Position numbers and translations under genes: made by a program. This document shows positions 7,723-31,246 of a DNA stretch of 64,000 bases, one piece after another. Source of the DNA: Bacillus sp. Cs-700 (GTDB lineage Bacteria > Bacillota > Bacilli > Bacillales > Guptibacillaceae); NCBI RefSeq assembly GCF_011082085.1, contig NZ_CP041063.1:2046001-2110000 (forward strand), written 5' to 3'. The first letter of the stretch is position 1; the number at the start of each line of letters is the position of its first letter. The notes under the pieces are model-generated. The model did no database searches. It saw only the letters and a list, made by a program, of their open reading frames with translations, and was not told where the DNA came from.

Positions 7723-7739
7723 AAGCCTTCCCCTTTTCC

Positions 7740-7823: not shown

Positions 7824-7880
7824 AAGTAAACACTCTTCAGCACGTTTTTTAAAGAATCGCTCTATGACAAGCTTCTAAAA

Positions 7881-7896
7881 ATGGCACCAAACTTGC
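7881..7896 (+). promoter_or_regulatory. Sigma-54 (SigL) -24/-12 promoter
   Basis: TGGCAC, 5 bases, TTGCA: an excellent match to the sigma-54 consensus, with the GG and GC doublets 12 bases apart. It lies about 43 bases upstream of the lactonase start codon and directly downstream of a divergent gene for a sigma-54 activator. Confidence 0.85.
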
Positions 7897-7938
7897 AATA
7901 AAAGTAAGTAATCTTAATGAATAATAGGAGGAATGCAC

Positions 7939-8784
7939 ATGAACTTTATTAATCAACACCCGAAGCTGTATGTGATGGATAACGGTTGCATGAGTATGGA
8001 TAAAAACTGGATGATCGCTATGCATAATCCAGCAACAGTAACGAACCCCCATGCCCAAACAGAATTTGTAGAATTCCCAATCTACACTGTTTTAATAGAC
8101 CATCCGGCTGGTAAAATTCTTTTTGATACGGCGTGTAACCCAAATTCAATGGGTCCTGAGGGACGTTGGACAGAAGCGACACAAAAAACTTTTCCTTATA
8201 AAGCGAATGAAGAATGCTATCTCCATAACCGATTAGAGCAATTAAACGTACGGCCTGAAGATATTAAATTCGTAGTCGCTTCCCACTTACACCTCGATCA
8301 CGCCGGATGTCTGGAAATGTTCACAAATGCAACCATCATTGTGCATGAAGACGAATTAAATGGAACTCTTCAGTCTTATGCTCGAAACCAGAAAGAAGGC
8401 GCCTACATATGGGCAGATATCGATGCATGGATCAAAAACAACCTTCAATGGCAAACCATTAAGCGAAATGAAGATAATGTGCAGCTTGCAGATGGAATAA
8501 AAGTCTTAAATTTTGGAAGTGGACATGCGTGGGGAATGATCGGTTTACACGTAGAAATGCCTGAAACTGGTGGAATCATCCTTGCCTCAGATGCCGTCTA
8601 TACAGCAGAAAGCTTTGGACCGCCTATCAAACCACCAGGCATCATTTATGATTCACTAGGTTACGCGGCTTCTGTTGAAAAAATTCGTCGACTAGCTAAG
8701 GAAACAAATAGTCAAGTATGGTTTGGTCATGACTCAAATCAGTTTAATCATTTCCGCAAATCAACAGAAGGTTATTACGAATAA
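7939..8784 (+). CDS. Metallo-beta-lactamase-fold lactonase (AHL/gamma-lactone type)
   Basis: A 281-residue member of the N-acyl homoserine lactonase family (AiiA/AttM-like), a dinuclear zinc hydrolase that opens lactone rings. The metal motif HLHLDH is at 116-121; further ligands are H196 (GSGHAWG), D218 (ASDAVY) and H264 (FGHD). The first in-frame ATG (7933) is only 1 base from AGGAGG (7926-7931); the ATG at 7939 has 7-base spacing and is used. It heads a two-gene unit with an iron alcohol dehydrogenase under a sigma-54 promoter. The pairing recalls lactonase plus hydroxybutyrate dehydrogenase in gamma-butyrolactone catabolism, so the substrate may be a dietary lactone rather than a quorum signal. 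Confidence 0.85.
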   Translation: MNFINQHPKLYVMDNGCMSMDKNWMIAMHNPATVTNPHAQTEFVEFPIYTVLIDHPAGKILFDTACNPNSMGPEGRWTEATQKTFPYKANEECYLHNRLEQLNVRPEDIKFVVASHLHLDHAGCLEMFTNATIIVHEDELNGTLQSYARNQKEGAYIWADIDAWIKNNLQWQTIKRNEDNVQLADGIKVLNFGSGHAWGMIGLHVEMPETGGIILASDAVYTAESFGPPIKPPGIIYDSLGYAASVEKIRRLAKETNSQVWFGHDSNQFNHFRKSTEGYYE

Positions 8785-8796
8785 AGGAGGCCAAAT

Positions 8797-9999
8797 ATGT
8801 CTTTTTCAAAACTTGTTTTCACGCCACTCAGCTTCACCGGCTGGGGTTCACTTGAGCAGCTTTTACCTGAAGTGGAGAAGCATTTACCTGAGCGTATTCT
8901 TGTAGTGACCGATCCCGTTTTAAATGAGATTGGCCTCGTTGATCGCGTTCGACTACCGTTAGAAGATGCAGGATACTCAGTAGATATTTATACCGATACT
9001 AAGCCAGAGCCACCGCTCGCTATTGGGGAAAAGCTCGTCAATTATACGAGAGAAAATAAATATAACCTCGTTATCGGTCTTGGCGGAGGAAGTGCATTAG
9101 ATCTCGCCAAATTAACGGCTGTTTTATCTGCACACGAAGGGCCTGTAAGTGATTATCTCAATTTATCAGGAAGCCGAGAGATTACAAAAAAAGGCCTCCC
9201 AAAAATATTAATTCCAACAACGGCAGGGACTGGTTCTGAAGTAACCAATATCGCAGTGCTATCTCTTGAAACCTCAAAAGATGTCGTTACGCACGACTAC
9301 CTTCTCGCAGATGCCGCCATTGTTGATCCAGAACTCACCCTTTCTGTACCGGCAAAGGTTACCGCCGCAACAGGTGTTGATGCCCTTACCCATGCAATTG
9401 AAGCTTACGTCTCGGTCAACGCGAGCCCTACGACGGATGGACTTGCCTTACAAGCAATCCGGTTAATTAGTCTCTCCATCAGACGCGCCGTTTCTAACGG
9501 GGAGGATCGAGAAGCTCGAATCGATATGAGTCATGGAAGCTATATCGCCGGTCTTGCTTTTTTTAATGCCGGTGTTGCAGGCGTTCATGCCCTCGCTTAT
9601 CCTCTTGGTGGCCAGTTTCATATCGCTCACGGTGATTCCAATGCCGTTCTTCTTCCTTACGTAATGGGATATATTCGAAAAAGCTGTACAAAGCGAATGG
9701 GAGACATTTTGAACGCGCTCGGAGGTAATTCTCAATTTCTTTCAGAAGAGAAAGCTTCCTATGAATGCGTTCGCCAATTAGAAAGACTTGTTAAGGATGT
9801 CGGCATTCCGAGTACACTTGGCGGGTTTAATATTCCAAGTTCAGCACTTGAGTCACTAACTGAAGACGGTCTGAAACAGAATAGACTTCTTGCCAGAAGC
9901 CCGCTTCCTCTTTACGAAGCCGATATTCGCGCGATCTATCAATCTGCCTTTAATGGCGAAGTTGTCGAAGCATCACTTGCAAATGTTCCGCACCCTTAA
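8797..9999 (+). CDS. Iron-containing alcohol dehydrogenase (4-hydroxybutyrate dehydrogenase-like)
   Basis: A 400-residue group III metal-dependent alcohol dehydrogenase. The NAD-binding GGGSALDLAK is at 96-105, TTAGTGSEVT at 141-150, and the metal ligands are D195, H199, H264 and H278 (GVDALTHAIEAY and GVHALAYPLGGQFHIAHGD). It starts 12 bases after the lactonase stop, with AAAGGAGG in front, so the two are cotranscribed from the sigma-54 promoter. A plausible job is oxidation of the hydroxy acid released by the lactonase, but family members act on many short alcohols, so the substrate is open. A long hairpin ends the transcript. Confidence 0.9.
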   Translation: MSFSKLVFTPLSFTGWGSLEQLLPEVEKHLPERILVVTDPVLNEIGLVDRVRLPLEDAGYSVDIYTDTKPEPPLAIGEKLVNYTRENKYNLVIGLGGGSALDLAKLTAVLSAHEGPVSDYLNLSGSREITKKGLPKILIPTTAGTGSEVTNIAVLSLETSKDVVTHDYLLADAAIVDPELTLSVPAKVTAATGVDALTHAIEAYVSVNASPTTDGLALQAIRLISLSIRRAVSNGEDREARIDMSHGSYIAGLAFFNAGVAGVHALAYPLGGQFHIAHGDSNAVLLPYVMGYIRKSCTKRMGDILNALGGNSQFLSEEKASYECVRQLERLVKDVGIPSTLGGFNIPSSALESLTEDGLKQNRLLARSPLPLYEADIRAIYQSAFNGEVVEASLANVPHP

Positions 10000-10266: not shown

Positions 10267-10313
10267 GAAAAGGCGAAAGTGTCCACTCCGAGTGGACACT
10301 TTCGCCTTTTTGT
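10267..10313. terminator. Bidirectional GTGTCCACT/AGTGGACAC terminator
   Basis: A perfect 20-bp stem (10268-10287 with 10291-10310) with a CCG loop, AAAA on the left and TTTTT on the right. It ends the 55-residue gene on the plus strand and faces the AEC carrier gene on the minus strand. It also forms the first half of the composite repeat described with 10321-10347. Confidence 0.85.
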
Positions 10314-10373: not shown

Positions 10374-11282
10374 TCAAACAAACGTCGTCGCTAAATAAAT
10401 CACCACTGGCATCGTAGCTAAACTCGACACAGTAGATACAAGCGTTGCACTAGAAACGTTTTGAGGTTCCGTATGAAATTGAATGGCGTACATCGTCGTA
10501 TTGGCGGCAGTCGGAGTTGCCGCCATAATGATCATAATTTGCTTTGTCAATGGATCCACAGGCATAAATACAACAATTCCAGCAGCAATAAGCGGCGCAA
10601 TCATTAATTTAAGCGATAGCGCCGTTGATAGCTTTTGCCAATCAATCGCACGCAACCGTATATTGGCAAGCTGCATGCCGAGCGTCACCATAATAACGGG
10701 AATCGCTGCATCCGCTATCAAGTCCACGCCATCACGGATCGTGCCGAGTGGAATTTGTAACCATTGAAACAAAAGACCAACAATGGCACCGTAAACCATC
10801 GGCATTTTTCTCACTGCTCTAAGAGCTGCTTTAATTCCGTCGTGATCTGGACTTCCTTTTGCCGCATAATAGACCCCAAGCGTGCTCATTAACAACTGCT
10901 GTAGCACCATTAGCACAATCGCCGTTTCCATTCCGAGCGTTCCAAATAGAAACAGGACAAGCGGCGTGCCATAATTTCCGTTATTCATAAATGCGCTCGA
11001 CAAAACCAAACCGCACCGTTCTGATTCGGTATAGCCGTATATTTTCGATAAAATGCTGACAAGCCCAATCAGTGCAAAGCACAAACCTAGCATGTAGATC
11101 GATAAATACCCGTAGGACGAATCAATTTTTTGTTCATAGAACGTTCGAAAAACAAGAAGCGGCACGAGCACATATAACGCGAGATTTGAGAGGACCCTCG
11201 TCTCTAATTTTAAAAAGCGCTGCGCAAGATAACCGACGCCAAATACGAAAAAGATCGGTAGCAGTATGGTTATGATCGACAT
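10374..11282 (-). CDS. AEC-family carrier, candidate sulfolactate exporter
   Basis: A 302-residue auxin-efflux-carrier-type permease with about ten membrane helices. It has the family's N-terminal LLPIFFVFGVGYLAQRF, a central NNGNYGTPLVLFLFG and a C-terminal AATPTAANTTMYAIQF. ATG at 11288 is only 1 base from AAGGAG; ATG at 11282 has 7-base spacing and is used. It is the last gene of the sulfoquinovose operon, 88 bases after the aldehyde dehydrogenase. AEC carriers move organic anions such as malate. Since the pathway ends in sulfolactate, which most such bacteria excrete, export of that anion is the natural guess, from context only. Confidence 0.82.
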   Translation of the reverse strand: MSIITILLPIFFVFGVGYLAQRFLKLETRVLSNLALYVLVPLLVFRTFYEQKIDSSYGYLSIYMLGLCFALIGLVSILSKIYGYTESERCGLVLSSAFMNNGNYGTPLVLFLFGTLGMETAIVLMVLQQLLMSTLGVYYAAKGSPDHDGIKAALRAVRKMPMVYGAIVGLLFQWLQIPLGTIRDGVDLIADAAIPVIMVTLGMQLANIRLRAIDWQKLSTALSLKLMIAPLIAAGIVVFMPVDPLTKQIMIIMAATPTAANTTMYAIQFHTEPQNVSSATLVSTVSSLATMPVVIYLATTFV

Positions 11283-11330
11283 CTTCATTCTCCTTCAGCT
11301 TCTAAAAGCGATAGCGTCCTATACAGGATG

Positions 11331-11361
11331 AAAAGGGACCCGATTTCATTCATCGGCTCCC
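11331..11361 (-). terminator. Hairpin between aldehyde dehydrogenase and AEC carrier genes
   Basis: Read on the minus strand: GGGA-g-CCGAT, a 7-base loop, ATCGG-g-TCCC, then TTTTC. The stem has one symmetric internal mismatch. It may partly terminate the operon and lower expression of the carrier. Confidence 0.55.
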
Positions 11362-11370
11362 CTTCTACTC

Positions 11371-12804
11371 TCATCCGTTAAAAACGATAATTTTTTCTTC
11401 CGTCATTTCTTCAATCGCATAGCGTGGACCTTCTTTGCCCGTTCCACTTTTCTTCACACCACCGTATGGCATATGATCAACACGATAGCCTGACGTATCA
11501 TTAATAATGAGCCCACCTACATGAACCTCATTGATCGCTTTTAACGTAAATGCGAGGTCATTCGTAAAGAGTCCAGCTTGAAGACCATACTCTGAATCAT
11601 TCACTCTCGTAATCACTTCATCTGTTGAACGATACGTGCTTACCGCTACGACCGGGCCAAAAACTTCTTGACGACAAACCTTCATATCATCCTTTACATT
11701 CGTCAAAATCGTAGGTTGATAGAAAACGCCATCTCGTTTTCCACCCGTTTCAATTACAGCTCCCTGATCAACTGCTTCTTGTACCCAGCTCTCAACGCGT
11801 ATCGCTTCACGTTCAGCAATCATTGGGCCGATATCAGTCGCCGCTTCCATTGGATCACCTAAAACAAGTCCTTCTGTTACTTCCTTCATTTTTGCAAGAA
11901 ACGGCTCATAAATATCTTCGTGTACATAAACGCGTTGGACTGAAATACATACTTGTCCTGCGTTATTAAAACTTTTTTGAGCAGACTGCGTTGCCGCTGT
12001 CTCAACATCGGCATCATGATGCACAATCGTTGCTGAATTGTTTCCTAGCTCTAATGCTACTTTGCGCAATCCTGCTTTTTCGCGAATATGCTGGCCAACA
12101 CGCGGGCTTCCCGTAAACGTAAACATATTCACATCTTGATTCGAAAGAAGCCATTCGCCTACCGTTGCTCCCTCTCCTGTAATCAGGTTCAGGCGTCCTG
12201 CTGGAAGTCCCGCTTCTTCAAATATTTCCGTTAAAAGAATCGCACAAACCGGCGTCACTTCAGCTGGTTTTAATACCACGCTATTGCCAGCTGCAAGTGC
12301 AGGGCCAATTTTGTGGCACACAAGATTCAGTGGTACGTTAAATGGCGTGATCGCTGCAACAACCCCAATTGGAAAGCGTCTAGTATACGCCTGACGCTGT
12401 TCTGACCCAGGCGCAGCTTCAACCGGAATACCTTCGCCGTGAATTCGCTTCGCTTCTTCTGCCGAAACTTCTAATGTTAAAGCAGCACGACCTACTTCAC
12501 CTTTACACTCCGCTAAAGGCTTTCCAACTTCCTTCGCAAGCACTTCACCAAGCTCATCCTGACGAGCTCGTAGTGTCGCGGCTGCCTTAATCAAAACCGT
12601 GTACCGATCGTAAGGCGAAAAAGGGGTTTTCAATGCTGTCTTAGCCGCTTGCACCGCATCGGTTACATCCTGTTCATCAGCTGTAGCTGTTTTCGCTGCT
12701 ATTTCTTGGGTATATTTGTTTAGCACATCATCTGTTGCTGTTTTTTCTCGCCATTCCCCATTGATGAATAGCCCATAAGTTCGTACTGAAGTTTGTGTAG
12801 CCAC
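11371..12804 (-). CDS. Aldehyde dehydrogenase, probable sulfolactaldehyde dehydrogenase
   Basis: A 477-residue NAD(P)-dependent aldehyde dehydrogenase of the succinate-semialdehyde/lactaldehyde type. It shows the N-terminal GLFINGEW, PFNVPLNLV with FTGSPRVG for the nucleotide, the catalytic Glu in LELGNNSA and the catalytic Cys in NNAGQVCIS. The start is GTG, 11 bases from GGAGG. It lies 20 bases after a class II aldolase in the sulfoquinovose operon. The aldolase should release 3-sulfolactaldehyde, so oxidation to 3-sulfolactate is the expected reaction. Cofactor preference cannot be read here. Confidence 0.88.
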   Translation of the reverse strand: MATQTSVRTYGLFINGEWREKTATDDVLNKYTQEIAAKTATADEQDVTDAVQAAKTALKTPFSPYDRYTVLIKAAATLRARQDELGEVLAKEVGKPLAECKGEVGRAALTLEVSAEEAKRIHGEGIPVEAAPGSEQRQAYTRRFPIGVVAAITPFNVPLNLVCHKIGPALAAGNSVVLKPAEVTPVCAILLTEIFEEAGLPAGRLNLITGEGATVGEWLLSNQDVNMFTFTGSPRVGQHIREKAGLRKVALELGNNSATIVHHDADVETAATQSAQKSFNNAGQVCISVQRVYVHEDIYEPFLAKMKEVTEGLVLGDPMEAATDIGPMIAEREAIRVESWVQEAVDQGAVIETGGKRDGVFYQPTILTNVKDDMKVCRQEVFGPVVAVSTYRSTDEVITRVNDSEYGLQAGLFTNDLAFTLKAINEVHVGGLIINDTSGYRVDHMPYGGVKKSGTGKEGPRYAIEEMTEEKIIVFNG

Positions 12805-12824
12805 GTTAACATCATCCTCCTCTT

Positions 12825-13721
12825 TTATAACGTTACGACCTTTTTACCTGACAAAAGTTCTTCTGCTTTCCCCTGACTACCAAATACGCGAATCTTTTCT
12901 TGTACTTTTTCTTTCATACGTAAACGACCGAGACCAAGTGAACTAGCGAGCACAATATCATCCGGATTTTCTGAAAATGCTTCTTGAACGCCTCTCGTAA
13001 ACGCCTGACGAAGCTCCGTATCTACATTAATTTTTGCAATCCCTAGTGATATCGCCCGTTGCACTTGTTCATCTGGCACATCTGACCCGCCGTGAAGAAC
13101 GACTGGACGCTGAACGGCTTCTACAATCTCCTTTAGTCGTTCAAAACGAAGGTTAGGCGTTTCTTTATAAATCCCGTGAGCGGTTCCTATCGATACGGCA
13201 AGGTAGTCAACATCTGTTGCCTCTACGAAAGCGACGGCTTCTTCTGTTGTTGTAATGAGCGCATCCTTTTCATCAACCGTAATGTCATCTTCCGTTCCAC
13301 CGATTTTACCAATTTCTCCTTCAGATCCAATGCCAAGGGCTCTTGCAATATCGACTACTTTTTTCGTCGTCGCCGTGTTTTCTTCAAAAGATAAACCAGA
13401 CCCATCAAACATGACGGATTGAAAGCCTATTTGCACAGCTTGCATCGTTTGCTCGAACTGACGGCTGTGATCAAGATGAATCGCGACTGGAACATTAAAT
13501 TCTTTTTCATACGTATCGATCAACCCTTTTAATGCTTCCATGCCTAGCGTTTGAATCACCTTTTGTCCTACTTGAATCATAATTGGTGCTTTTTCCTCAG
13601 CAGCAGCTTCAAAAATGGCGAGCACCGTTTCCGCATTATGTGCGCTAAATGCCCCTACCCCATACCCATTTTGAAAAGCATGATCCAGCATTGTTTTTCC
13701 GTTAATAAATGGCATCATCAT
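12825..13721 (-). CDS. Class II aldolase, probable 6-deoxy-6-sulfofructose-1-phosphate aldolase
   Basis: A 298-residue zinc-dependent aldolase of the fructose-bisphosphate/tagatose-bisphosphate family. Zinc and catalytic blocks are HLDHS (82-86), EGEIG (134-138), SIGTAHG near 177-183, VVLHGGSDV and KINVDTELR. Three ATGs are in tandem; AAGGGAG favours the second or third (13718 or 13715), and I keep the longest. It lies between the GntR regulator (9-base gap) and the aldehyde dehydrogenase (20-base gap). In this context it should split sulfofructose-1-phosphate to DHAP and sulfolactaldehyde. A plain sugar bisphosphate substrate is the alternative. Confidence 0.88.
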   Translation of the reverse strand: MMMPFINGKTMLDHAFQNGYGVGAFSAHNAETVLAIFEAAAEEKAPIMIQVGQKVIQTLGMEALKGLIDTYEKEFNVPVAIHLDHSRQFEQTMQAVQIGFQSVMFDGSGLSFEENTATTKKVVDIARALGIGSEGEIGKIGGTEDDITVDEKDALITTTEEAVAFVEATDVDYLAVSIGTAHGIYKETPNLRFERLKEIVEAVQRPVVLHGGSDVPDEQVQRAISLGIAKINVDTELRQAFTRGVQEAFSENPDDIVLASSLGLGRLRMKEKVQEKIRVFGSQGKAEELLSGKKVVTL

Positions 13722-13730
13722 TTCTCCCTT

Positions 13731-14453
13731 CTATCGCTTCAATTCAATATTGTAATGGTACTGATCACTTCGATATTTCGTTTTTGTATATTCGATTGGA
13801 TGGTCATTCAATCCATAGCTGAGACGCGTCATTTCAAGTAGCGCTTCACCCGGACGAATCGCCAATGAATCTGCTTCATCAATCGTGGCATTAATCGCGG
13901 CAATTCGCTCTTTTGCTTTGTTTAAATAAACCTGATAGTTTTCTAGAATTTCATAGTATTTCGCTGTATTTAAATCATGCTGCATAAGTATCTTTCCAAT
14001 TGACTCTGGCCAGCACGTTCGTTCAAGGGCAACAGGCGTCTCATCCGCAAACCGTATGCGTTCAACGAGAAGAATCGGAGCTCCTTCAGCCACTTGAAGC
14101 ATTTCACTTTCATGAAAAAGGTTTTCCTTAAATTCAGCTCGTATCAGTTTGGATGAAGGAACCTGCCCTTTTTCCATTACTTCTTCCGCAAAACCTTTTA
14201 ACTGCCCAAGGTTACCTACCAATTGATGTGGCTTTACGATTGTGCCATGGCCCTGTTTCTTTTCGAGCAAACCATTTTGAACGAGAATCGCAATGGCCTG
14301 CCGAATCGTCGTCCGGCTAACACCAAATTCCTTGATGAGCCCTTGCTCTGTTGGAATAATCGTATTTGGTTTCCACGTTCCACTCTGAATGCGGTCGATC
14401 AGAACATCTTTTATTTGGAGATAAAGCGCCTCTCCGTTCTGATTAATCGACAT
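13731..14453 (-). CDS. GntR/HutC-family regulator of the sulfoquinovose operon
   Basis: A 240-residue transcription factor. A winged helix-turn-helix covers residues 5-72 (IIPTEQGLIKEFGVSRTT, then IRQAIAILVQNGLLEKKQGHGTIV), and a UTRA ligand-binding domain covers about 90-235. The gene overlaps the end of the kinase gene by 11 bases and is followed after 9 bases by the aldolase, so it is made with the enzymes it probably controls. A palindrome with TGATGTTT/AAACATCA arms between the operon's promoter and first gene (21613-21632) is the likely operator. The effector is probably sulfoquinovose or a pathway phosphate. Confidence 0.9.
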   Translation of the reverse strand: MSINQNGEALYLQIKDVLIDRIQSGTWKPNTIIPTEQGLIKEFGVSRTTIRQAIAILVQNGLLEKKQGHGTIVKPHQLVGNLGQLKGFAEEVMEKGQVPSSKLIRAEFKENLFHESEMLQVAEGAPILLVERIRFADETPVALERTCWPESIGKILMQHDLNTAKYYEILENYQVYLNKAKERIAAINATIDEADSLAIRPGEALLEMTRLSYGLNDHPIEYTKTKYRSDQYHYNIELKR

Positions 14454-15606
14454 ACAGTTCAGTCCTTTGTAATGGCGGTGGGTACGACCTAATATCTTCC
14501 CCGATAAGCGGTTTTAGCCATTGATAATATGCTTTCTGATCTTCAATGAACACCTCAGGCATCACTCGTTCTCCAGCAGCCACCACGTTACGAAGTTCAA
14601 TCGGGGTCATCCTTACTGAATAGCGATGGTGAGCATTCCGTTGAATGGAGACCATCACATTTGAAATCCCTTCACGAATCCATTCGCCCCCAACGCTCCC
14701 CACACGATAAGCTTCTTCTCGATCAACGTCCGAAACAACTTCAGAAAAACTTCGCTGATTCATGCCTAAAAGTTCAGCTCTTGTCATGACGTTTAACTCA
14801 CTTTTTAAAAAGCCAGCTACCTCATTGGAAATCCCGCCTAGCACTGTCCTGCCAGCGACATTTCCTCTCGCAACCTGCCCCGTCTTTCCAAAACAAACGC
14901 CTTCACTCACAACGACCGTGGCATACCCAAACCGATTCAATGCGGTGTTAACATTTTCAAGAAGCATTTCTGCTTGAATTGGCCGCTCTGGAATGCCAAT
15001 AAAATGCGGCCCTTCTTCTTCATACTCCTTAAGAAGCCCAGATGCGGCAGCCAGCCACCCAGCATTTCTTCCCATTGTCTCAAGTACACGAACCTTTTCA
15101 AAATTCTGCATGGAAGCGAGGTCGCGGCTCATATCTCGCGTCGCCTGAGCGACATATCGTGCAGAGCTTCCAAAACCAGGGGCATGGTCTGTTCCACCAA
15201 GATCGTTATCCACCGTCTTGGGAAGTCCGATGACTTGAAGGGTGAAACTTTGCCTTCTCGCTTCTGCTTCTACTTTCGCTAACGCCTCCATCGTTCCATT
15301 CCCACCGATAAAAACAAGGACATCGACTCCCTGAGCATGTAGCAGGCGCACACCTTTTTCAATATGCTCATCGGTTAGTGGAAACCGTCCAGAGCCAAGG
15401 CAAGCACCAGGGACATCTCGATGAAGATCAATACGATGTAGCATTTCATCCTTACCGTCTAAATAATTTCCTTGTGCCAATCCTTCATAACCATTTTGTA
15501 TCAACAGCAGAGAATGATCGCGTTTGACCTCGTTCACAAACCCTGCGAGGGTAGCATTAATGACGGCCGTAGGTCCCCCAGCCTGACCAATGGCGACCTT
15601 TTTCAT
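14443..15606 (-). CDS. PFK-A family kinase, probable 6-deoxy-6-sulfofructose kinase
   Basis: A 387-residue 6-phosphofructokinase-type kinase. Family blocks are GQAGGPTAVIN (7-17), LGSGRF (70-75), GGNG (101-104), PKTVDND with the catalytic Asp (129-135), ETMGRNAGW and the C-terminal RAELLGMNQR. It differs from ordinary PFK: the Mg-binding Asp of GGDG is Asn103, and the residue before TVDND is Lys130, as in pyrophosphate-type enzymes, while Gly104 is the ATP-type residue. It sits 14 bases after the isomerase. Phosphorylation of sulfofructose at C1 is the expected step. The phosphate donor is not certain. Confidence 0.87.
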   Translation of the reverse strand: MKKVAIGQAGGPTAVINATLAGFVNEVKRDHSLLLIQNGYEGLAQGNYLDGKDEMLHRIDLHRDVPGACLGSGRFPLTDEHIEKGVRLLHAQGVDVLVFIGGNGTMEALAKVEAEARRQSFTLQVIGLPKTVDNDLGGTDHAPGFGSSARYVAQATRDMSRDLASMQNFEKVRVLETMGRNAGWLAAASGLLKEYEEEGPHFIGIPERPIQAEMLLENVNTALNRFGYATVVVSEGVCFGKTGQVARGNVAGRTVLGGISNEVAGFLKSELNVMTRAELLGMNQRSFSEVVSDVDREEAYRVGSVGGEWIREGISNVMVSIQRNAHHRYSVRMTPIELRNVVAAGERVMPEVFIEDQKAYYQWLKPLIGEDIRSYPPPLQRTELYVD

Positions 15607-15620
15607 GCGACTGTCTCCCT

Positions 15621-16964
15621 TCAGTTCTTCGTATAAATCGTCGTCTTAAGCCCGAGCTGTTTTCCAAGTTCCACGAGCTCATCAGCCACATCATCATAAA
15701 TAATCGCGTAGTGCGGTTCGAAGCCTTCTTCCATTAAGCCATATAACGTGTCATTGATTTCCGTTTCAAGTTCCACTTCAACAGACGTTCCATTGAAACG
15801 CTGTGGCGTATCGAGTGCGTTTCCTCGCATCACAAGCAAGCGATATCCTTCTGGCGTATAGCCAACGCGGAACATCGTCACGCGACCTGGTTTTAATCCA
15901 AATTCCATCGTAAAGCCTAGCTTTCGGTTTGGATGAACGCCTGGGCGTGCACCTTGATCAGGATGGGCGAGTGAATAGGCGCCAGCACCGCAATGCCAAA
16001 ACACAACTGAATTACTCGCTTCATTGACGTGAACCATATCTCCAAGATACGGCGCACTTCCTGTTAGCTGTTGCAGAATAAACATCGATACCGAACCGTG
16101 AATATCGGATTCACACGATGACACAACGCCGTCCTCAGTAAATTGAGAAAGGGTTGAACATGCCGCAGCGCCAAGCTCATTGAAAAAGTCCGGCCAGCAG
16201 CGAATCGCAAGCGCTGAAACGTCTTCTGCATCAATTTGTTCCTGAACATAAGTTGTAAACTGAGCAAATCGCTGTACTGTTTCTTCGTTCCGATTTAGCC
16301 CAATCACCTGTTGCTCTGCTCGTTCAATCGCGCCTTCCCATTTTTCACGAGGTAGCTTGACGCATTCCTCAAATGCTTTGTTTAAATCAAAGTTTTTCAC
16401 CGTAACGCCAAGCTGTTTTTGAAGCGCTTCTTCATCCGTTCCCGAGAAGAAAAAGCCTGGTGGGTGTTCCCCAATCACACCAATCGTAAGACCTTTGAGA
16501 TCTTCAATCACTTTTTGCACTTTAAGTTGAACTTTAATTCTCTTTTGGACTTGCGCCTCATCCCCATTTCCGAATACAAAGCTAAATGGGTGGTTGGCAC
16601 ACCGTAGGACATGACTTGTGCTGTTTCCGCCGGTTAACGAGTTTAAGCGAAGTCTTCCTCCTACACTTGGCTCACGTACGGACCAAACAATCACTGGCGC
16701 TTCCACTTTTTTAATTAACGCTTCAACAAATTCACCATCCGCAAACGTTACGCTCTGATAGATACTTGCAATCACATCATCGCTGTTAACGTTTTCAAGA
16801 AAGGCCTCAAGATCTTCAGGAGACGTAATGATTTCCTCTGGTTCAATCACGTTCTTGGTCACGCTATGCAGAAATTCCGAACTTTTCTTTCGCTGTATCT
16901 CTCCCGCTTCTAGATCAAACGTCTTTCTTCCGATTGGTACGTATAGAATGCTTGTTTTTGGCAC
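15621..16964 (-). CDS. Fucose/arabinose-isomerase-like protein, probable sulfoquinovose isomerase
   Basis: A 447-residue protein of the L-fucose/L-arabinose isomerase superfamily. Evidence is the overall length, CWPDFFNELGAAACSTLSQ, CESDIHGSVSMFILQQLTG and the near-C-terminal VFWHCGAGA followed by HPNRKLGFTMEFGLKPG. Enzymes of this fold convert aldoses to ketoses with a divalent metal. Next to a sulfoquinovosidase and a PFK-type kinase it should convert sulfoquinovose to 6-deoxy-6-sulfofructose. GTG at 16964 is the first possible start; an in-frame stop lies just upstream. The 93-base gap before it is A/T rich and could hold a secondary promoter. Confidence 0.85.
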   Translation of the reverse strand: MPKTSILYVPIGRKTFDLEAGEIQRKKSSEFLHSVTKNVIEPEEIITSPEDLEAFLENVNSDDVIASIYQSVTFADGEFVEALIKKVEAPVIVWSVREPSVGGRLRLNSLTGGNSTSHVLRCANHPFSFVFGNGDEAQVQKRIKVQLKVQKVIEDLKGLTIGVIGEHPPGFFFSGTDEEALQKQLGVTVKNFDLNKAFEECVKLPREKWEGAIERAEQQVIGLNRNEETVQRFAQFTTYVQEQIDAEDVSALAIRCWPDFFNELGAAACSTLSQFTEDGVVSSCESDIHGSVSMFILQQLTGSAPYLGDMVHVNEASNSVVFWHCGAGAYSLAHPDQGARPGVHPNRKLGFTMEFGLKPGRVTMFRVGYTPEGYRLLVMRGNALDTPQRFNGTSVEVELETEINDTLYGLMEEGFEPHYAIIYDDVADELVELGKQLGLKTTIYTKN

Positions 16965-17057
16965 GATTGGTCACAACCTTTCATCTCTGTTTGTTACAAA
17001 TACTATATCATACATTATTATGTTTTAAAATAGGTAGTAACCTTTTATTCCACTCTC

Positions 17058-19103
17058 TTATTGTATTGCCAACGCTGCTTTTCGGAAAACATCTGCATAT
17101 GTTGAGCGTTTACGATAAAAAACCGGTGTTTCACCAATTGGCGCATTCACTTCGACTTGACCACCATTCGTTTCCTTACCAGTCCATAAATGAACCCACT
17201 CATCTTCAGGTAAGTACACGGACCACGTTTCTTTTCCTTCTTCATAAACCGGTGCGACCACCATCTCTGAACCTAGCATATATTGATATTGAATGTTATA
17301 AGAAGCAAGATCATGTTCATACTCCATAAACATCGGACGTTGAATCGGAATCCCTTTTTCAGCGTTCTCTTTGCTTAACGCTTTTAGGTAAGGTTTCAGT
17401 GCTGTATAAACGTTTGTCATTTTCACAAAATGCTCAAGCGTCTCTTCGTCTTGATCAAACTGGAAGCAATCATCAGGACGGTTCCCTTCATGTGTTCGCA
17501 TAACAGGTGTAAATGCCGCCATATCAACCCAGCGAAGCAACAACTCTTTATTCCGCTTGTTGCCATGAAGACTTGTGTAGCCACCGATATCGCTGTGATG
17601 AACGCCATTTCCACTCATCCCAGCAGATAGCGCAGCTGGAATAACGGAAGCAAGACCATCATCAAGACTCCAATCAACACTTTGATCTCCAGCCCATAAC
17701 AATGGACAGTACCCCTGACTCCCTGAATATCCTGCACGCATAAAGTAAACAATATCGCCCCAGCGTCCTGCTTTTTGAACGGCGTTATGATTCACTTTTG
17801 CCCACATCACTGGCCATGCATTATGCATTTTTGTTGCTGGTTCTCCGCTATGAAGCTTTAAGTCTGTTGGCAAATATTCACCAAAATCAGCCATCCATCC
17901 GTCCATTCCAAAATCAATCATGTTCTTTTGGATAACGTCTTCATACCATTCACACGCCGCTTCGTTTGTAAAATCAACGACACCACAATCGAATTCACCG
18001 AAATCAACAACATAATCTCCGCCATCTAAAGCCGTAGCAAGATACCCCTTGTCATAGGCTTCACGGTACAGGTCTCCTTCCACAGCAACATAAGGGTTGA
18101 TGTACCCCATAAAACGAATGCCTTTTTCCTTCCATTCCTTCACTTTTTGATCAAGTTCAGGATACTCCTCCGGATTCCATTTCCAGTTCCACATCAATCG
18201 TTTCCCAAAAGACGTCACACGCTTCCCTTGCCAGTCCTGACACCAAATAGCTCCGATTTTCATTCCTTTTTCAATCGCGCGATCAATTTTACTTTGAACG
18301 TGTTCCGTTCCGCCCTGCATGCCAAGCCAGATTCCATCAAACGTCCAATCTGGAAGCTCAGGTTGCCGACCGAGACGAGCGGTTAGTTTTTCAACGAGAT
18401 CTTTATACGTCTGTCCTGTTTCAAACAAAATCGAAGCCGGTGCTTCCCAAATGTGAAGCTCATGAAAATCGTCTCGCTGAAAATCGAAGTCAGCGAAAGC
18501 CGTCGTCTCAACATGACAGTAGTATTTATTCGTAGATACATAGGTTGGCTGGGGATAATTCGTATTGTAATAGTCGCCACCAGCTTGATCTTTCACGTCG
18601 GCTTGCCAGGTGGTATAAGTCGATTTATTCCGTCCTACCCCAGGCTCTGACGTCCAGAGTGGGAAGTTCTTTCCTCTTAAATTGAAATAGGAAAGCTGTT
18701 CCCCACACCCGTAAATTTTCTCATCGGCATCAGCGGCAACGCGTAACCAGAAACGATTAAACAGAGGATCTACGAGCTCAAACGATACGCGCAGACCTTC
18801 TTTGTCTTGCTTTAATACCATTGTTAACAGCTCGTGATCATGAGAGAAGTGACGAAATCCGATGCGACACGTCTCTCCTTCATACCGTACGGTTGCATAG
18901 CGAAGAGCTACTCGTTCCACAACATAATCTTTTATTTTAAAATTTCCTCTGTACATATCAATCGTTTCTTCACCGCTACCAACGAAAATAAATGGTTGGG
19001 CTGGTGAATGACGAAACAGTAAGCGACCGTCCAGATGAACGTCAAATTCTTCTCCATTTTGCTTCACTTCAAAACTTGGTTTGATCGTTTTTGTATTTAA
19101 CAT
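17058..19103 (-). CDS. GH31 sulfoquinovosidase (YihQ-type)
   Basis: A 681-residue alpha-glycosidase releasing sulfoquinovose from sulfoquinovosyl glycerol and related glycosides. It follows the E. coli YihQ sequence closely as I remember it, and all key residues are present with a constant offset of one: Q263, Q289, R302, W305 and Y509 (the QQRWY sulfonate-recognition set), nucleophile D406 in MADFGEY and acid/base D473 in WAGDQSVDW. The diagnostic stretches QDWQGKRVTSFGKR and MWNWKWN are there. No signal peptide is seen, so it works in the cytoplasm on imported glycoside. It lies 24 bases after the symporter. Ordinary alpha-glucosidase activity is unlikely given the QQRWY set. Confidence 0.96.
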   Translation of the reverse strand: MLNTKTIKPSFEVKQNGEEFDVHLDGRLLFRHSPAQPFIFVGSGEETIDMYRGNFKIKDYVVERVALRYATVRYEGETCRIGFRHFSHDHELLTMVLKQDKEGLRVSFELVDPLFNRFWLRVAADADEKIYGCGEQLSYFNLRGKNFPLWTSEPGVGRNKSTYTTWQADVKDQAGGDYYNTNYPQPTYVSTNKYYCHVETTAFADFDFQRDDFHELHIWEAPASILFETGQTYKDLVEKLTARLGRQPELPDWTFDGIWLGMQGGTEHVQSKIDRAIEKGMKIGAIWCQDWQGKRVTSFGKRLMWNWKWNPEEYPELDQKVKEWKEKGIRFMGYINPYVAVEGDLYREAYDKGYLATALDGGDYVVDFGEFDCGVVDFTNEAACEWYEDVIQKNMIDFGMDGWMADFGEYLPTDLKLHSGEPATKMHNAWPVMWAKVNHNAVQKAGRWGDIVYFMRAGYSGSQGYCPLLWAGDQSVDWSLDDGLASVIPAALSAGMSGNGVHHSDIGGYTSLHGNKRNKELLLRWVDMAAFTPVMRTHEGNRPDDCFQFDQDEETLEHFVKMTNVYTALKPYLKALSKENAEKGIPIQRPMFMEYEHDLASYNIQYQYMLGSEMVVAPVYEEGKETWSVYLPEDEWVHLWTGKETNGGQVEVNAPIGETPVFYRKRSTYADVFRKAALAIQ

Positions 19104-19127
19104 GATTTCCCCCTACATTTTTACCGT

Positions 19128-20909
19128 TTATGCGCTTCTAAATTTCTTTTCAGCGTTAACTGCTTCTTCATGCTTCCTTGTAACAAATCCAGAGTATTTT
19201 TTATTCCATGATTTAAGGGCAAGAAGGTAACAAATTCCTCCAACGACAGCCGTTCCTAAGATCGCTGGCCAGAACCATCCAGAAACCATTCCTCCTGCGT
19301 AGGCAAATCCAATTGGTGAGAAGAGAATGTAGACCATCACGACAAGACTAATAAGAACAACAGATACTGGAATCGTAAACTTCCACGGCACCATGTCCAC
19401 CTTTGGATTCGCTCGGAACTCATACGCTTCAGGAAGAGGACGAATGCGTCCAACGACCATCATGATCGTAACCTCAATAAGGAAAAGGATGGCTGAAATA
19501 TGAATAAAGTTCATCGTAATTTCAATGTTAAACAGCTGGTTTAATCCCCATACAAGCATGTAGTACGTAATCACGTGGAAAATAATTGCTATTTTCGCTC
19601 CAAGTGCAGGGATGCGTTTTGAAACAATCCCAACAAGAACAATGGCAATAATCGGGATGTTAAAAAAGCCTGTAAAGCGGCGAATCAAATCCCACAATCC
19701 ATCCGGTGCGTTCATAAGCATTGGCGCAATAAAGAAAGAGACAAGCGCGAGAACGCTTCCAAAATATTTACTAACATTGATCAGCTGGCGATCTGAAGCG
19801 TTTTTGTTAATACCAGCTTTGTATACATCAAGCGCAAACATCGTTGCCGCACTGTTTAACAGTGAGTTGAAACTTGAGAACACGGCGCCTAGAAGCACAG
19901 CTAGAAAGAGTCCAGACATAAACGTCGGTAGCAGATTCGACACAACCGTTGGATAAGCGAGATCCACTGGATCCATTGAGCTTCCATAGAGATGGAAAGC
20001 AATAACCCCTGGAATCATCATCATAAACGGAACCGTTAATTTATAAAATCCAGAGAGCAGAACCCCTTTTTGACCTTCTGCAAGGTTCTTCGCACCAAGC
20101 GTTCGCTGAATCACGTACTGATTTGTTCCCCAGTAGAACATGTTCATAAAAATCATTCCGGTAAAAATGGTTGAAAACGGGACAGAATCTGTACTGGATC
20201 CTATCGCATTTAACTTCTCAGGATTTTCCGTGGTAATCGTTTTGATTCCTTCTAACATATCACCGTTTCCAAGGGCAAAAAAGCCGAGTATGGGAACGAT
20301 TAAGCCAATAAAGAGAAGCCCTATTCCGTTCAACGTATCGGATACCGCTACCGCTTTTAACCCACCAAAGATGGCATAGATGGCGCCGATAATTCCAATA
20401 ACCCAAATGACGAGCCAGACAGACGATTCAAATGAAATCCCGAGTAGCTCTGGTACATCAAAAAGACGAAGAATCGCAAGTGCCCCAGAATACAAAACGG
20501 AAGGAATTGTGACAAACATATATCCAAGCATAAACAGGATAACCGTGTATCTGCGAACGCTTTCATCATAACGTTTACTTAAAAACTCAGGTAACGTTGA
20601 AAACGCACCGCCAAGATAGCGGGGTAGCAAGATAAGCGCCATGATGACAATGGCGAACGCTGCTGTCACTTCCCATGCCATGTTGGAAAGGTTCGTTCGA
20701 TAGGCTTGTCCATTCAAACCGATTAACTGTTCGGCAGATAAGTTTGTAAGTAAAAGAGAACCTGCAATAAATCCACCCGTTAACCCTCGACCTGCAAGAA
20801 AGTAACCATCTGAGTCATTAACGGAATTTCTAGTTTTTAAGTATGAAACCCACGCGACGAGCGCCATAAAGAAGACGCATGAAAGTAATGTAAACGTGAT
20901 ACCCGACAT
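19128..20909 (-). CDS. Solute:sodium symporter (SSS family), candidate sulfoquinovoside importer
   Basis: A 593-residue SSS-family permease with about 14 membrane helices, starting MSGITFTLLSCVFF and containing LAGRGLTGGFIAGSLLLTNLSAEQ, GGLKAVAVSDTLNG and WGTNQYVIQRTLGAK, as in sodium/sugar symporters. It starts after AAGGAGG and lies 14 bases downstream of the DUF4867 gene and 24 bases upstream of the sulfoquinovosidase. It therefore most likely brings in sulfoquinovose or sulfoquinovosyl glycerol. Substrate assignment rests on context. Confidence 0.9.
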   Translation of the reverse strand: MSGITFTLLSCVFFMALVAWVSYLKTRNSVNDSDGYFLAGRGLTGGFIAGSLLLTNLSAEQLIGLNGQAYRTNLSNMAWEVTAAFAIVIMALILLPRYLGGAFSTLPEFLSKRYDESVRRYTVILFMLGYMFVTIPSVLYSGALAILRLFDVPELLGISFESSVWLVIWVIGIIGAIYAIFGGLKAVAVSDTLNGIGLLFIGLIVPILGFFALGNGDMLEGIKTITTENPEKLNAIGSSTDSVPFSTIFTGMIFMNMFYWGTNQYVIQRTLGAKNLAEGQKGVLLSGFYKLTVPFMMMIPGVIAFHLYGSSMDPVDLAYPTVVSNLLPTFMSGLFLAVLLGAVFSSFNSLLNSAATMFALDVYKAGINKNASDRQLINVSKYFGSVLALVSFFIAPMLMNAPDGLWDLIRRFTGFFNIPIIAIVLVGIVSKRIPALGAKIAIIFHVITYYMLVWGLNQLFNIEITMNFIHISAILFLIEVTIMMVVGRIRPLPEAYEFRANPKVDMVPWKFTIPVSVVLISLVVMVYILFSPIGFAYAGGMVSGWFWPAILGTAVVGGICYLLALKSWNKKYSGFVTRKHEEAVNAEKKFRSA

Positions 20910-20923
20910 AAGGTTGTCCTCCT

Positions 20924-21589
20924 TTATTCCTTGCTGTAAGCAACTGTTATATTTTCACCGACAATTCCGTCGTGAGCGCCTAGCGACATAAATCGTTCAT
21001 GCTCAGGATGAGCAAGGAGCCATTTATTTTTCATAAAAAGGAGCGGATCCTGTCCTTTTCGAGCATCTTCTAATGGCGTATTCGTTCCTTCTGGCAAAAT
21101 CACCGTACATTTGAATCCTTCATCGCTCACTTTACAAGGAGCAAGGTGAAGCGTTGTTTGAAACATTTCAATCGCGGTACCCGCTGGAACATAAAACGCC
21201 TTTATATTCTTCACATCGTATGTATGATTTGTAATGTCATTCGTATGTCCTAGAAGGAGCACAAAATCCGTAATAGCAACGTTAATTTCACTTCCCTTAT
21301 GAAATTCAAGGCCACCTAACGCGGAATTTTTCCCGTTACAGTACCCAATCTGTACTGGCATCCCTCCATAGTAGCTGTTTTCAACGAACGCTTTAAGCGA
21401 CTCCGCTTCAAGCTCTTCTTTTGAAGGAACGTAGTGATTTCCCTGTTCAGGAATTTTCGTCTCTTTCATTGACTCCGCTATCTGCTCATATGGAAAATCT
21501 AAAAGAACCTTCCCGTACGTTTGAAAAGCTTCAGAATCTACTGACTGCACATGTAAATGGGGATTAAACTCTCGTAACATTTCAATCAT
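20924..21589 (-). CDS. DUF4867 family protein, first gene of the sulfoquinovose operon
   Basis: A 221-residue soluble protein of DUF4867. Its middle has a cupin-like run of short beta-type segments (GGLEFHKGSEINVAITDFVLLLG, with HTYDVKNIKAFYVPAGTAIEMF next to it). The start at 21589 has GGAGGTG at 6-base spacing. I recall that DUF4867 genes accompany the transaldolase-type sulfoquinovose clusters of Firmicutes (there called SftX) without a known activity. Its presence here in a kinase/aldolase-type cluster suggests a role common to both, such as sugar mutarotation or isomerisation. That role is unproven. Confidence 0.82.
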   Translation of the reverse strand: MIEMLREFNPHLHVQSVDSEAFQTYGKVLLDFPYEQIAESMKETKIPEQGNHYVPSKEELEAESLKAFVENSYYGGMPVQIGYCNGKNSALGGLEFHKGSEINVAITDFVLLLGHTNDITNHTYDVKNIKAFYVPAGTAIEMFQTTLHLAPCKVSDEGFKCTVILPEGTNTPLEDARKGQDPLLFMKNKWLLAHPEHERFMSLGAHDGIVGENITVAYSKE

Positions 21590-21612: not shown

Positions 21613-21632
21613 TGATGTTTAATGAAACATCA
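21613..21632. promoter_or_regulatory. Operator palindrome for the sulfoquinovose operon
   Basis: A perfect inverted repeat, arms TGATGTTT and AAACATCA around AATG, lying between the -10 box and the ribosome binding site of the DUF4867 gene (about +8 to +27). The position suits repression by the operon's GntR/UTRA protein. Confidence 0.65.
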
Positions 21633-21646
21633 TAACCTTTTATCAC

Positions 21647-21676
21647 ATTATATTGTAAACGCATTCATAAATGCAA
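21647..21676 (-). promoter_or_regulatory. SigA promoter of the sulfoquinovose operon
   Basis: On the minus strand: -35 TTGCAT (21671-21676), 18-base spacer, -10 TATAAT (21647-21652). Transcription should start near 21640, followed by the operator and the DUF4867 ribosome binding site. Confidence 0.75.
21653..21667. promoter_or_regulatory. cre site (CcpA) within the sulfoquinovose promoter
   Basis: TTGTAAACGCATTCA fits the cre consensus WTGNAANCGNWNNCA at every fixed position. It fills the spacer between -35 and -10, so CcpA binding would block RNA polymerase when preferred sugars are present. Confidence 0.75.
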
Positions 21677-21749: not shown

Positions 21750-23159
21750 TTAATAAACTACAGCATTCGTTAAATCAACACGCTCCACTTCTTCTCGGCT
21801 ATCAATCAACCATTTCCCTCCGTTTTTCACAAGTTTATAGTGAAAACCACTTGAGGTAACTTCGGTCTTTACGTTGCTTTCACCTCGCTCATGATTCGCT
21901 GAATCCATCGTAACGAGAACGTCGATTTCTGCTTTCTTTCCAGATGAATCGATAAATAAGCTGTCCAGATCAAAGGCAGCTTCCACAACCTCTCCAGTAA
22001 AAGCGGCATTATTTTCTCTGACAGACTGGAAGCGCTCTTCAAAATACGATTGTAACTCTGGCGTTAAGTTTGAAAAGTACTCTGTTTCAAGATTTTCATA
22101 AGCATAGATCCAGTCATTTAAGTACGTATTAACAGCGGAAATGATCAGATCTGTTTCATCTTGATCCTGCACCACTTCTGGCTGATCAGCAGCTATTTCT
22201 TTTTCGATCACGGCAGGTTCGCGATAATCGATTGAAAAGAACGGAGCTTCCCCTTCAAAATGAACGGAAGGGCTTTTCACAACGCCTGCTTCAAACGTTT
22301 TCTCTGCATGCATGACGACAGATCCGTCCGTTGGATAAGGACCGATTTCTCCTTCTCCGGCATCACCTACCGCGATGCCAGTGTCTTTTCCATTTATAAA
22401 TAACCGAGCATCTTCATAGTTTGAATCTGGCATCACAAAGGCCCCATTAATAGGCAAATCGACCTGCACTGTTTCATCAGATGGAACGAGTTCGATCTCC
22501 GCTTCTCCACGCATGGTGTACCCTTCATTCTCTAATTTTGTTTCAAAATGATAGCTTCCCGGTAGAAATGGCCCGATTTTTTTCCCGTCTTCTCCAATCG
22601 CTCCGCTCTCTTCTTTATTAATGAAGAGCGTTGTTTTATTGAATTGCGTTCCTACCTCTACATAGATCGGGGCAGGAGCTATCTCGTAATCCTTGAACAT
22701 ATAAAAAGCCTTCCCATCTTCCCTTAACGTCATTTGAAGCAGCAAGCTTTCGTTCGGTTTGATAAGTGTATGATCGCTTAAGGCTCTTGCCTGTCTCTCC
22801 AAATCTTGAATAAGAAGCGCTCGTTGGTCAGGAAGATCTTTTAAAAGCGAGACAAAACTCGCAAGTTCAGCTTCCTGTGAAAGCAATGGATTTTTGTCAG
22901 GAATGAACTTCCCAATCGCCTTGTAATCCTCTTCCAAAAGCGCATCGTGAAACTGCTCCACTGTTCGCTCAGGAGAAGTGATCCATTTTAGCGTTACAAA
23001 ACTACCAATCAGAACAAGGAGAACCCCTCCAACGATTCCTCCCCATATAAGCCATCTCGATTTCGTTAATGGCGTTTCCCTCGTTCTCGCTACTTTCTGT
23101 CCGCACTTAACGCAAAACGCTCCAGCCTCGCTCCTCTTACACTGATTACACCAATTCAT
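21750..23159 (-). CDS. TcaA-like zinc-ribbon membrane protein
   Basis: A 469-residue protein with an N-terminal zinc ribbon (CNQC...CVKCG, residues 4-19), one membrane helix (about 36-58) and a large outer part. The outer part contains two or three TcaA-type beta domains (for example YEDARLFINGKDTGI) and a C-terminal NTF2-like domain (about 325-465, ending YKLVKNGGKWLIDS). TcaA relatives affect cell-wall antibiotic tolerance in staphylococci. ATG at 23159 has GGAGGTGGG just upstream; the frame upstream is non-coding. It is divergent from two further zinc-ribbon genes. Confidence 0.8.
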   Translation of the reverse strand: MNWCNQCKRSEAGAFCVKCGQKVARTRETPLTKSRWLIWGGIVGGVLLVLIGSFVTLKWITSPERTVEQFHDALLEEDYKAIGKFIPDKNPLLSQEAELASFVSLLKDLPDQRALLIQDLERQARALSDHTLIKPNESLLLQMTLREDGKAFYMFKDYEIAPAPIYVEVGTQFNKTTLFINKEESGAIGEDGKKIGPFLPGSYHFETKLENEGYTMRGEAEIELVPSDETVQVDLPINGAFVMPDSNYEDARLFINGKDTGIAVGDAGEGEIGPYPTDGSVVMHAEKTFEAGVVKSPSVHFEGEAPFFSIDYREPAVIEKEIAADQPEVVQDQDETDLIISAVNTYLNDWIYAYENLETEYFSNLTPELQSYFEERFQSVRENNAAFTGEVVEAAFDLDSLFIDSSGKKAEIDVLVTMDSANHERGESNVKTEVTSSGFHYKLVKNGGKWLIDSREEVERVDLTNAVVY

Positions 23160-23337
23160 CTTCCCACCTCCGCCCATTATTCCAAATCATATGGGAGAGA
23201 TTTCTAATTATGACTGCTATTCCACATCGATTTTTAACATGATTTAGAACTTTTATCATATCTATGAAAAGGTCGAGAAAAGCACTCGTTCGCCTCTGTC
23301 CTATAAAGAGCGAACAGAAGCAAGGAGGAGATGGGAC

Positions 23338-27547: not shown

Positions 27548-27606
27548 ATTTTCCCCTCCAATTAAAGTATTACTCGTCGAATACGATCGATATTTCCCGG
27601 AAAATA

Positions 27607-31221: not shown

Positions 31222-31246
31222 GGTTTCTCTCCACTCCTCTCCAGAA

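What the first reader, a model, noticed from the sequence alone, without database searches (positions are those of the whole stretch)
10374..21589. Complete sulfoquinovose catabolic operon of the kinase/aldolase (sulfo-EMP2) type in a Bacillaceae
Nine consecutive minus-strand genes give a full pathway: symporter, GH31 sulfoquinovosidase, isomerase, PFK-type kinase, class II aldolase, aldehyde dehydrogenase and anion carrier, plus a GntR regulator and a DUF4867 protein. The GH31 enzyme carries the full QQRWY sulfonate-recognition set (Q263, Q289, R302, W305, Y509) with D406/D473 catalysts, each one residue offset from E. coli YihQ as I recall it. The steps would be sulfoquinovoside to sulfoquinovose, sulfofructose, sulfofructose-1-phosphate, DHAP plus sulfolactaldehyde, then exported sulfolactate. 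I recall sulfo-EMP2 from Arthrobacter and Alkalicoccus urumqiensis; most Firmicutes described use a transaldolase route, which is absent here.
Basis: partly seen in the sequence, partly recalled or inferred. Interest (0 to 1): 0.85.

Follow-up and report, generated by a model that had tools for sequence, protein, structure and literature searches.

The report
Sulfoquinovose-degrading operon, kinase/aldolase type
This is a full set of genes with which a Bacillus relative probably eats the sulfur-containing sugar of plant membranes; the pathway is already known, and this is one more clear example of it.

Summary
Nine consecutive minus-strand genes (21589 down to 10374) form a sulfo-EMP2 operon: SqvB (DUF4867), SSS symporter, GH31 sulfoquinovosidase, SqvD, SqiK, GntR, SqiA, sulfolactaldehyde dehydrogenase, AEC-type carrier. 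SqvD passes the NCBIfam sulfoquinovose isomerase cut-off (810.7 vs 700 bits). The named GH31 sulfonate and catalytic residues are present. The dehydrogenase has the H164/N280 pair of B. megaterium SlaB. The pathway is published (Bacillus/Alkalicoccus urumqiensis), so this is a new member of a known kind. One correction: Arthrobacter is reported with sulfo-EMP. Additions: 8 of 8 genus genomes searched carry the cluster. Of 31 other order-level regions, 19 are sulfo-EMP2, 11 sulfo-transaldolase, 1 unclassed; many of both kinds share one gene order, differing by sqiK+sqiA versus sqvA, and many share an operator-like site. Two Paenibacillus species encode both modules. SqiK falls in the PPi-phosphofructokinase branch but has the glycine linked to ATP use and altered 6-phosphate-site residues. 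All biochemistry is inferred; nothing was assayed.

The parts
20924..21589 (-). sqvB, DUF4867 cupin; proposed ring-opening/mutarotase helper, role unproven
   Evidence: PF16161 258.5 bits; 2His-2Glu metal set E120/H122/E126/H173 (numbered from the longer ORF start 21664) conserved in 48 of 48 aligned; solved relative 9gyy, B. megaterium SqvB; start
19128..20909 (-). SSS-family Na+/solute symporter, probable SQ or SQ-glycerol importer
   Evidence: PF00474; NF007790 727.9 bits over cut-off 401; a relative was seen in 21 of the 30 classed order-level clusters
17058..19103 (-). GH31 sulfoquinovosidase (yihQ type)
   Evidence: Nearest solved: 8r56, 6pnr, YihQ 5aed; Q263/Q289/R302/W305/Y509 and D406/D473, each kept in 45 or 46 of 46 rows
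15621..16964 (-). sqvD, sulfoquinovose isomerase
   Evidence: NF048012 810.7 bits, cut-off 700
14443..15606 (-). sqiK, PfkA-superfamily 6-deoxy-6-sulfofructose kinase
   Evidence: PF00365; next to sqvD; N103-G104, K130, R173, R276, M282, R285; nearest solved PPi-PFKs 3hno and 3k2q by sequence and fold
13731..14453 (-). GntR/HutC-type regulator; overlaps sqiK by 11 bases
   Evidence: PF00392 + PF07702; relatives in both sulfo-EMP2 and sulfo-TAL operons
12825..13721 (-). sqiA, class II (metal) sulfofructose-1-phosphate aldolase
   Evidence: PF01116; best solved relatives 8q57/8q58; H82/H85/H182/H210 conserved in 42 of 42
11371..12804 (-). slaB, sulfolactaldehyde dehydrogenase (GTG start)
   Evidence: PF00171; H164/N280 as in B. 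megaterium SlaB, C286; H164 in 53 of 53, N280 in 49 of 53, C286 in 53 of 53
10374..11288 (-). AEC-family membrane carrier, probable sulfolactate exporter (by position only)
   Evidence: PF03547 95.8 bits; a relative in 25 of the 30 classed order-level clusters
21625..21640 (-). operator-like 16-mer AAAGGTTATGATGTTT (2 mismatches to AAAGGTNNNNACCTTT)
   Evidence: Pattern at up to 2 mismatches in 29 of 48 upstream regions against 55 of 902 control windows
21654..21667 (-). cre-like 14-mer TGAATGCGTTTACA between -35 and -10 (possible CcpA site)
   Evidence: 1 mismatch to the recalled cre consensus; up to 1 mismatch in 15 of 48 regions against 47 of 902 controls
21647..21676 (-). promoter-like TTGCAT-18-TATAAT; the -35 is weak and the scanner did not list it
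   Evidence: read from the sequence; not listed
10268..10310 (.). 20-pair hairpin with T tail, probable terminator (listed on the + strand; near-perfect palindrome, so it may serve both directions)

Best explanation
A catabolic operon for sulfoquinovose by the sulfo-EMP2 route. The symporter brings in sulfoquinovosyl glycerol or sulfoquinovose; GH31 releases sulfoquinovose; SqvD (perhaps helped by SqvB) makes 6-deoxy-6-sulfofructose; SqiK phosphorylates it at C1, probably with ATP; SqiA splits it into DHAP, which enters glycolysis, and sulfolactaldehyde; SlaB oxidises that to sulfolactate, which the AEC carrier exports. The GntR protein probably represses one promoter ahead of sqvB until a pathway sugar binds, and CcpA may add glucose repression. 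Shown: gene content, families and residues. Inferred from characterised relatives: each reaction. Inference only: import and export substrates, the phosphate donor, the operator and catabolite control.
For: Family and cut-off results; GH31 residues and nearest solved relatives; SlaB residue pair; SqvB metal set; published description of the pathway; the cluster in 8 of 8 genus genomes searched, in one gene order; only one transaldolase in the genome, away from the operon; operator-like site shared with relatives.
Against: No assay or growth test. SqiK and SqiA match no sulfo-specific NCBIfam model: their best hits are ordinary PPi-PFK and FBP-aldolase models, so their specificity rests on context and residues. 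SlaB's best NCBIfam hit is a lactaldehyde dehydrogenase, under its cut-off. No mutarotase activity was detected for a DUF4867 protein in a published test. The operator pattern was taken from these same sequences, so its count is partly circular; it is missing at that stringency from 19 of 48 regions, both hybrids among them.
Confidence: 0.93

Rival explanations
1. The operon serves another 6-sulfo sugar (for example sulfofucose or sulforhamnose) as main substrate, with the same enzyme kinds.
For: The isomerase has a fucose-isomerase C-terminal domain; sulfofucose catabolism is published in another bacterium (listing and start of abstract only).
Against: SqvD passes the sulfoquinovose isomerase equivalog cut-off; GH31 has the full sulfoquinovosidase residue set.
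Confidence: 0.04
2. The kinase and aldolase act on ordinary sugar phosphates, and sulfofructose is cleaved by the genome's transaldolase instead.
For: Best NCBIfam hits of both are ordinary sugar-phosphate enzymes; one transaldolase exists in the genome.
Against: That transaldolase is only 38% identical to SqvA and not linked; a separate PfkA exists; at two PfkA sites that I recall as 6-phosphate contacts, R162 and H249, SqiK has K and M.
Confidence: 0.03

Closest known systems
Sulfo-EMP2 of Bacillus (Alkalicoccus) urumqiensis and Megamonas rupellensis (Liu 2021, seen only through passages of reviews PMC9594981 and PMC12890257)
   Same: SqvD, SqiK, SqiA, SqvB, GH31; oxidation of sulfolactaldehyde to sulfolactate as in the aerobic bacilli
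   Different: Different genus; the urumqiensis sequences were not compared directly
Sulfo-TAL (sulfo-SFT) operon of Bacillus megaterium type
   Same: 8 of 11 fetched order-level sulfo-TAL regions have the order sqvB-symporter-GH31-sqvD-gntR-slaB-AEC, as has the window once sqiK and sqiA are left out; operator-like site in 9 of 12
   Different: Has transaldolase SqvA first and lacks sqiK and sqiA
Sulfo-EMP of E. coli and Arthrobacter
   Same: Same intermediates
   Different: YihS, YihV and YihT belong to other families
PPi-phosphofructokinases of the PRK14072 kind (3hno, 3k2q)
   Same: Nearest solved relatives of SqiK by sequence and fold; SqiK passes the NF010675 cut-off, 335.8 vs 273; lysine at the K124 site
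   Different: Glycine at the 104 site in 45 of 45 operon-linked rows (other relatives: D 43, G 20 of 63), invariant R173 (5 of 63 elsewhere), M or I at the H249 site

Membership tests
sulfo-EMP2 pathway | SqvD-type sulfoquinovose isomerase | tested here: met
   NF048012 810.7 bits, cut-off 700
sulfo-EMP2 pathway | PfkA-family (PF00365) kinase in the cluster | tested here: met
   PF00365 172.1 bits, a second PFK besides the genome's other one
sulfo-EMP2 pathway | Class II (PF01116) aldolase with metal-binding histidines | tested here: met
   PF01116 325.4 bits; four histidines conserved in 42 of 42; their role as metal ligands is recalled
sulfo-EMP2 pathway | Sulfolactaldehyde dehydrogenase or reductase | tested here: met
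   PF00171, H164/N280; by family and residues only
sulfo-EMP2 pathway | No transaldolase in the cluster (versus sulfo-TAL) | tested here: met
   none in the window's operon; single unlinked genome copy
sulfo-EMP2 pathway | SqiK phosphorylates sulfofructose and SqiA cleaves the product | not testable with these tools
   needs enzymes
GH31 sulfoquinovosidase | Sulfonate-recognition and catalytic residues | tested here: met
   Q263, Q289, R302, W305, Y509, D406, D473; that these are the recognition residues is recalled and is as the finding states
sulfo-TAL pathway (considered) | SqvA transaldolase in the cluster | tested here: not met
ATP-dependent sulfofructose kinase (donor) | ATP rather than PPi as donor | tested here: inconclusive
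   glycine at the 104 site suggests ATP, lysine at the 124 site occurs in all 63 other relatives too; the meaning of these positions is recalled

The most novel reading that the evidence does not exclude
In Bacilli the sulfofructose-splitting step is an exchangeable cassette: sqvA or sqiK+sqiA sits in one fixed sulfoquinovose operon under one GntR regulator and operator, has been swapped more than once, and some Paenibacillus encode both routes in one operon. SqiK arose from the PPi-phosphofructokinase branch, uses ATP, and recognises the sulfonate with R173 in place of lost 6-phosphate contacts.
Probability: 0.45. Interest if true: 0.42.

Novelty: new member of a known kind. Interest (0 to 1): 0.27.

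Why it matters
[quoted passage not shown] The case adds a genus with the sulfo-EMP2 route and shows that the route is common among the isomerase-bearing genomes sampled from this order. The side-by-side operons offer a natural system to ask why a cell uses a kinase/aldolase or a transaldolase for the same step.

Tried and rejected
Rejected: the DUF4867 start at 21664, because promoter-like and operator-like sequences lie at or downstream of it. Nothing found: Rfam gathering search of 5500-27000 gave 0 hits; no solved relative of SqvD by sequence up to E = 1; no tRNA in the window. Not useful: a paper search on phosphofructokinase gatekeeper residues returned 75 papers, the 12 listed being off-topic. 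The automatic scans found about as many sites as shuffles (promoters 20 against mean 19.8, sd 4.4; terminators 13 against 10.6, sd 3.4) and did not list the promoter-like site I describe.

Against the cassette idea: in the SqvD-only tree (56 rows) transaldolase rows need 4 changes, 2 forced by starred branches, but in the SqvD+GntR+SlaB tree (48 rows) 2 changes with only 1 forced; the one-clade test gave p-AU 0.045, borderline and named after the first tree was seen, and two of the 12 transaldolase rows are long branches. So 'more than once' is suggested, not shown.

Dropped from the joint tree besides: L062, L063, L041, L156-L159, L077, L149, and loci in which one of the three genes was not found. 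L041 could not be classed because a stretch beside the operon reads N. Of the 35 genomes with a hit, the window's own and 31 others were examined; G081, G218 and G238 were not fetched. L062 is counted as sulfo-TAL although its SqvD is only 33% identical and under the family cut-off. A first random-window control for the operator (97 of 839) could overlap the sites themselves and was replaced by one that cannot (55 of 902, from 46 of the 48 loci). The 45 SqiK rows include the duplicate pair L150/L077 and four distant clusters (L156-L159), in which position 282 is I in 3 of 4; the 63 'other' rows are the remaining best hits of a capped list, not a balanced sample.
Full report
What is there. Nine adjacent minus-strand genes run from 21589 down to 10374. 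In order of transcription they encode a DUF4867 protein, an SSS symporter, a GH31 enzyme, an SqvD-type isomerase, a PfkA-superfamily kinase, a GntR/UTRA regulator, a class II aldolase, an aldehyde dehydrogenase and an AEC-family carrier. Coding regions are tight: gntR overlaps the kinase gene by 11 bases. A 20-pair hairpin with a T tail lies just beyond the last gene at 10268-10310. The next gene upstream (21750-23177) is a TcaA/YvbJ-like protein with no evident link.

Identity of each enzyme. The isomerase scores 810.7 bits against NCBIfam's sulfoquinovose isomerase, cut-off 700. The GH31 enzyme is closest to solved enzymes 8r56, 6pnr (an accession given in PMC11968277, whose abstract reports the structure of E. 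rectale SftG) and E. coli YihQ. Q263, Q289, R302, W305, Y509, D406 and D473 are all present, and each is kept in 45 or 46 of the 46 enzymes aligned. The dehydrogenase has H164 and N280, the pair that PMC10599462 (passages) gives for B. megaterium SlaB in place of two arginines of RlGabD; H164 is kept in 53 of 53 rows, N280 in 49 of 53. The DUF4867 protein keeps the two-histidine two-glutamate metal set of B. megaterium SqvB in 48 of 48 rows; a published test found no mutarotase activity for a relative (PMC11968277, passages). The aldolase is closest to solved chains 8q57 and 8q58, which I recall, but did not read, to be SqiA structures; four histidines are kept in 42 of 42 rows.

The kinase. 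The genome has two PFK-family genes: a PfkA elsewhere, and this one. By sequence and by predicted fold (mean pLDDT 86.4, 16-row alignment) the nearest solved structures are two PPi-dependent phosphofructokinases, 3hno and 3k2q. I aligned 45 operon-linked kinases with 63 other relatives and with the genome's own PfkA. At the PfkA G104 site all 45 have glycine, against D 43 and G 20 of the 63 others; at the G124 site all 45 and all 63 have lysine. From recalled biochemistry, glycine at 104 goes with ATP, so I predict ATP as donor. Of the PfkA residues that I recall as substrate-phosphate contacts, R243 and R252 are kept (R276, R285 in 45 of 45), while the R162 site is Q in 31 and K in 10 of 45 (K in the window), and the H249 site is M in 42 and I in 3. 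An arginine two residues on from the R162 site (R173) is invariant in 45 of 45 but found in 5 of 63 others. That makes R173 a candidate sulfonate contact. This is sequence evidence only; I did not locate it in a bound structure.

Relatives. In 249 genomes drawn from the order, 35 had an SqvD-family hit and 31 passed the cut-off; 8 of 8 genomes of the window's genus had it, the one same-family genome of another genus did not. Besides the window I fetched regions from 31 of the other 34 genomes with a hit, plus one distant paralogue. Of these 31, 19 are sulfo-EMP2 (kinase and aldolase), 11 sulfo-TAL (transaldolase), 1 could not be classed; none was seen with both modules. 12 of the 19 show the window's whole gene order, and 8 of the 11 show the same order with sqvA in front and without sqiK and sqiA; the rest lack a detected symporter, GH31, DUF4867 or AEC gene or are rearranged. 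In named genomes, clusters with both kinase and aldolase were seen in Halobacillus, Oceanobacillus, Fictibacillus, Marinococcus, Sporosarcina, Bacillus solitudinis and Paenibacillus, among others; that scan kept the best 80 of at least 577 confirmed relatives, so it is not a census. Published neighbourhood work already counts 23 of 127 DUF4867 neighbours as sulfo-EMP2 type and draws a Halobacillus faecis cluster (PMC11968277, passages).

Hybrids and swaps. Paenibacillus ginsengihumi (L073, seen again as L154) and P. alkaliterrae (L074) have sqvA, sqiK and sqiA in one run of genes without stops inside; in their SqvA the lysine aligned with K89 is kept, K89 being the Schiff-base residue of SqvA named in PMC12890257 (passage). 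The reviews' passages mention sulfo-EMP/EMP2 hybrids, and a transketolase/transaldolase case is listed. I saw no report of a transaldolase plus kinase/aldolase operon in the listings (8 papers; 1 paper; 12 papers), but I read only passages of five of those papers and no supplements. Trees place the transaldolase operons among kinase operons, but whether there was more than one swap is borderline (see Tried and rejected).

Control. Upstream of sqvB lies TTGCAT-18-TATAAT with a cre-like 14-mer in the spacer, followed by AAAGGTTATGATGTTT. A palindromic pattern AAAGGTNNNNACCTTT, first seen in a sulfo-TAL region, is matched with up to 2 mismatches in 29 of 48 upstream regions (9 of 12 sulfo-TAL, 20 of 34 sulfo-EMP2, 0 of 2 hybrid), against 55 of 902 AT-matched control windows; the cre-like pattern with up to 1 mismatch in 15 of 48 against 47 of 902. 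Relatedness inflates these counts. The likeliest reading is one GntR operator kept across both operon types.

Verdict. It is a new member of a published pathway. For the genus I found no report: a search for sulfoquinovose with the genus names gave 16 papers, and the 10 listed hold no 'sulfoquinovose'; 6 were not seen. Its value is as a clear example and as a set of testable predictions on the kinase and on cassette exchange.

Noticed in passing
window 26555-40486, minus strand: A galactoside/Leloir block (galE-like epimerase, GH42, galT, galK, LacI, GH36, GH35, ABC transporter) lies next door. Its GH36 gene is 17.5-19 kb from sqvD in 5 of 8 genus genomes, 413 kb away in one and absent in two; outside the genus the nearest is 33 kb in one of 8 genomes. 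Speculation: a neighbourhood for head groups of thylakoid galactolipids and sulfolipid.
   Followed up: partly
window 6049-9999: A PrdR-like sigma-54 activator, an AhlS-family N-acyl homoserine lactonase (561.7 bits, cut-off 475) and an iron alcohol dehydrogenase. The lactonase has only weak matches (E 1e-6 or worse, or just under) in the 15 other genomes searched, so it looks recently acquired.
   Followed up: partly
L156-L159 (L158 is the same contig as L087): Distant clusters with SqvD at 42-44%, kinase 40-42%, aldolase 49-51% and dehydrogenase 55-57% identity, with no DUF4867 detected and, except L156, no GH31. They may serve another sulfosugar.
   Followed up: no
L066 (Bacillus solitudinis) 18548-19312: Two short pieces of a second SqiK-like gene in the same region as a full-length one, perhaps a decayed duplicate.
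   Followed up: no
L065 (Sporosarcina cascadiensis): A sulfo-EMP2 operon 67-88% identical, gene by gene, to the window's in a different family, sister to the window's genus in the joint tree; possible horizontal transfer.
   Followed up: no
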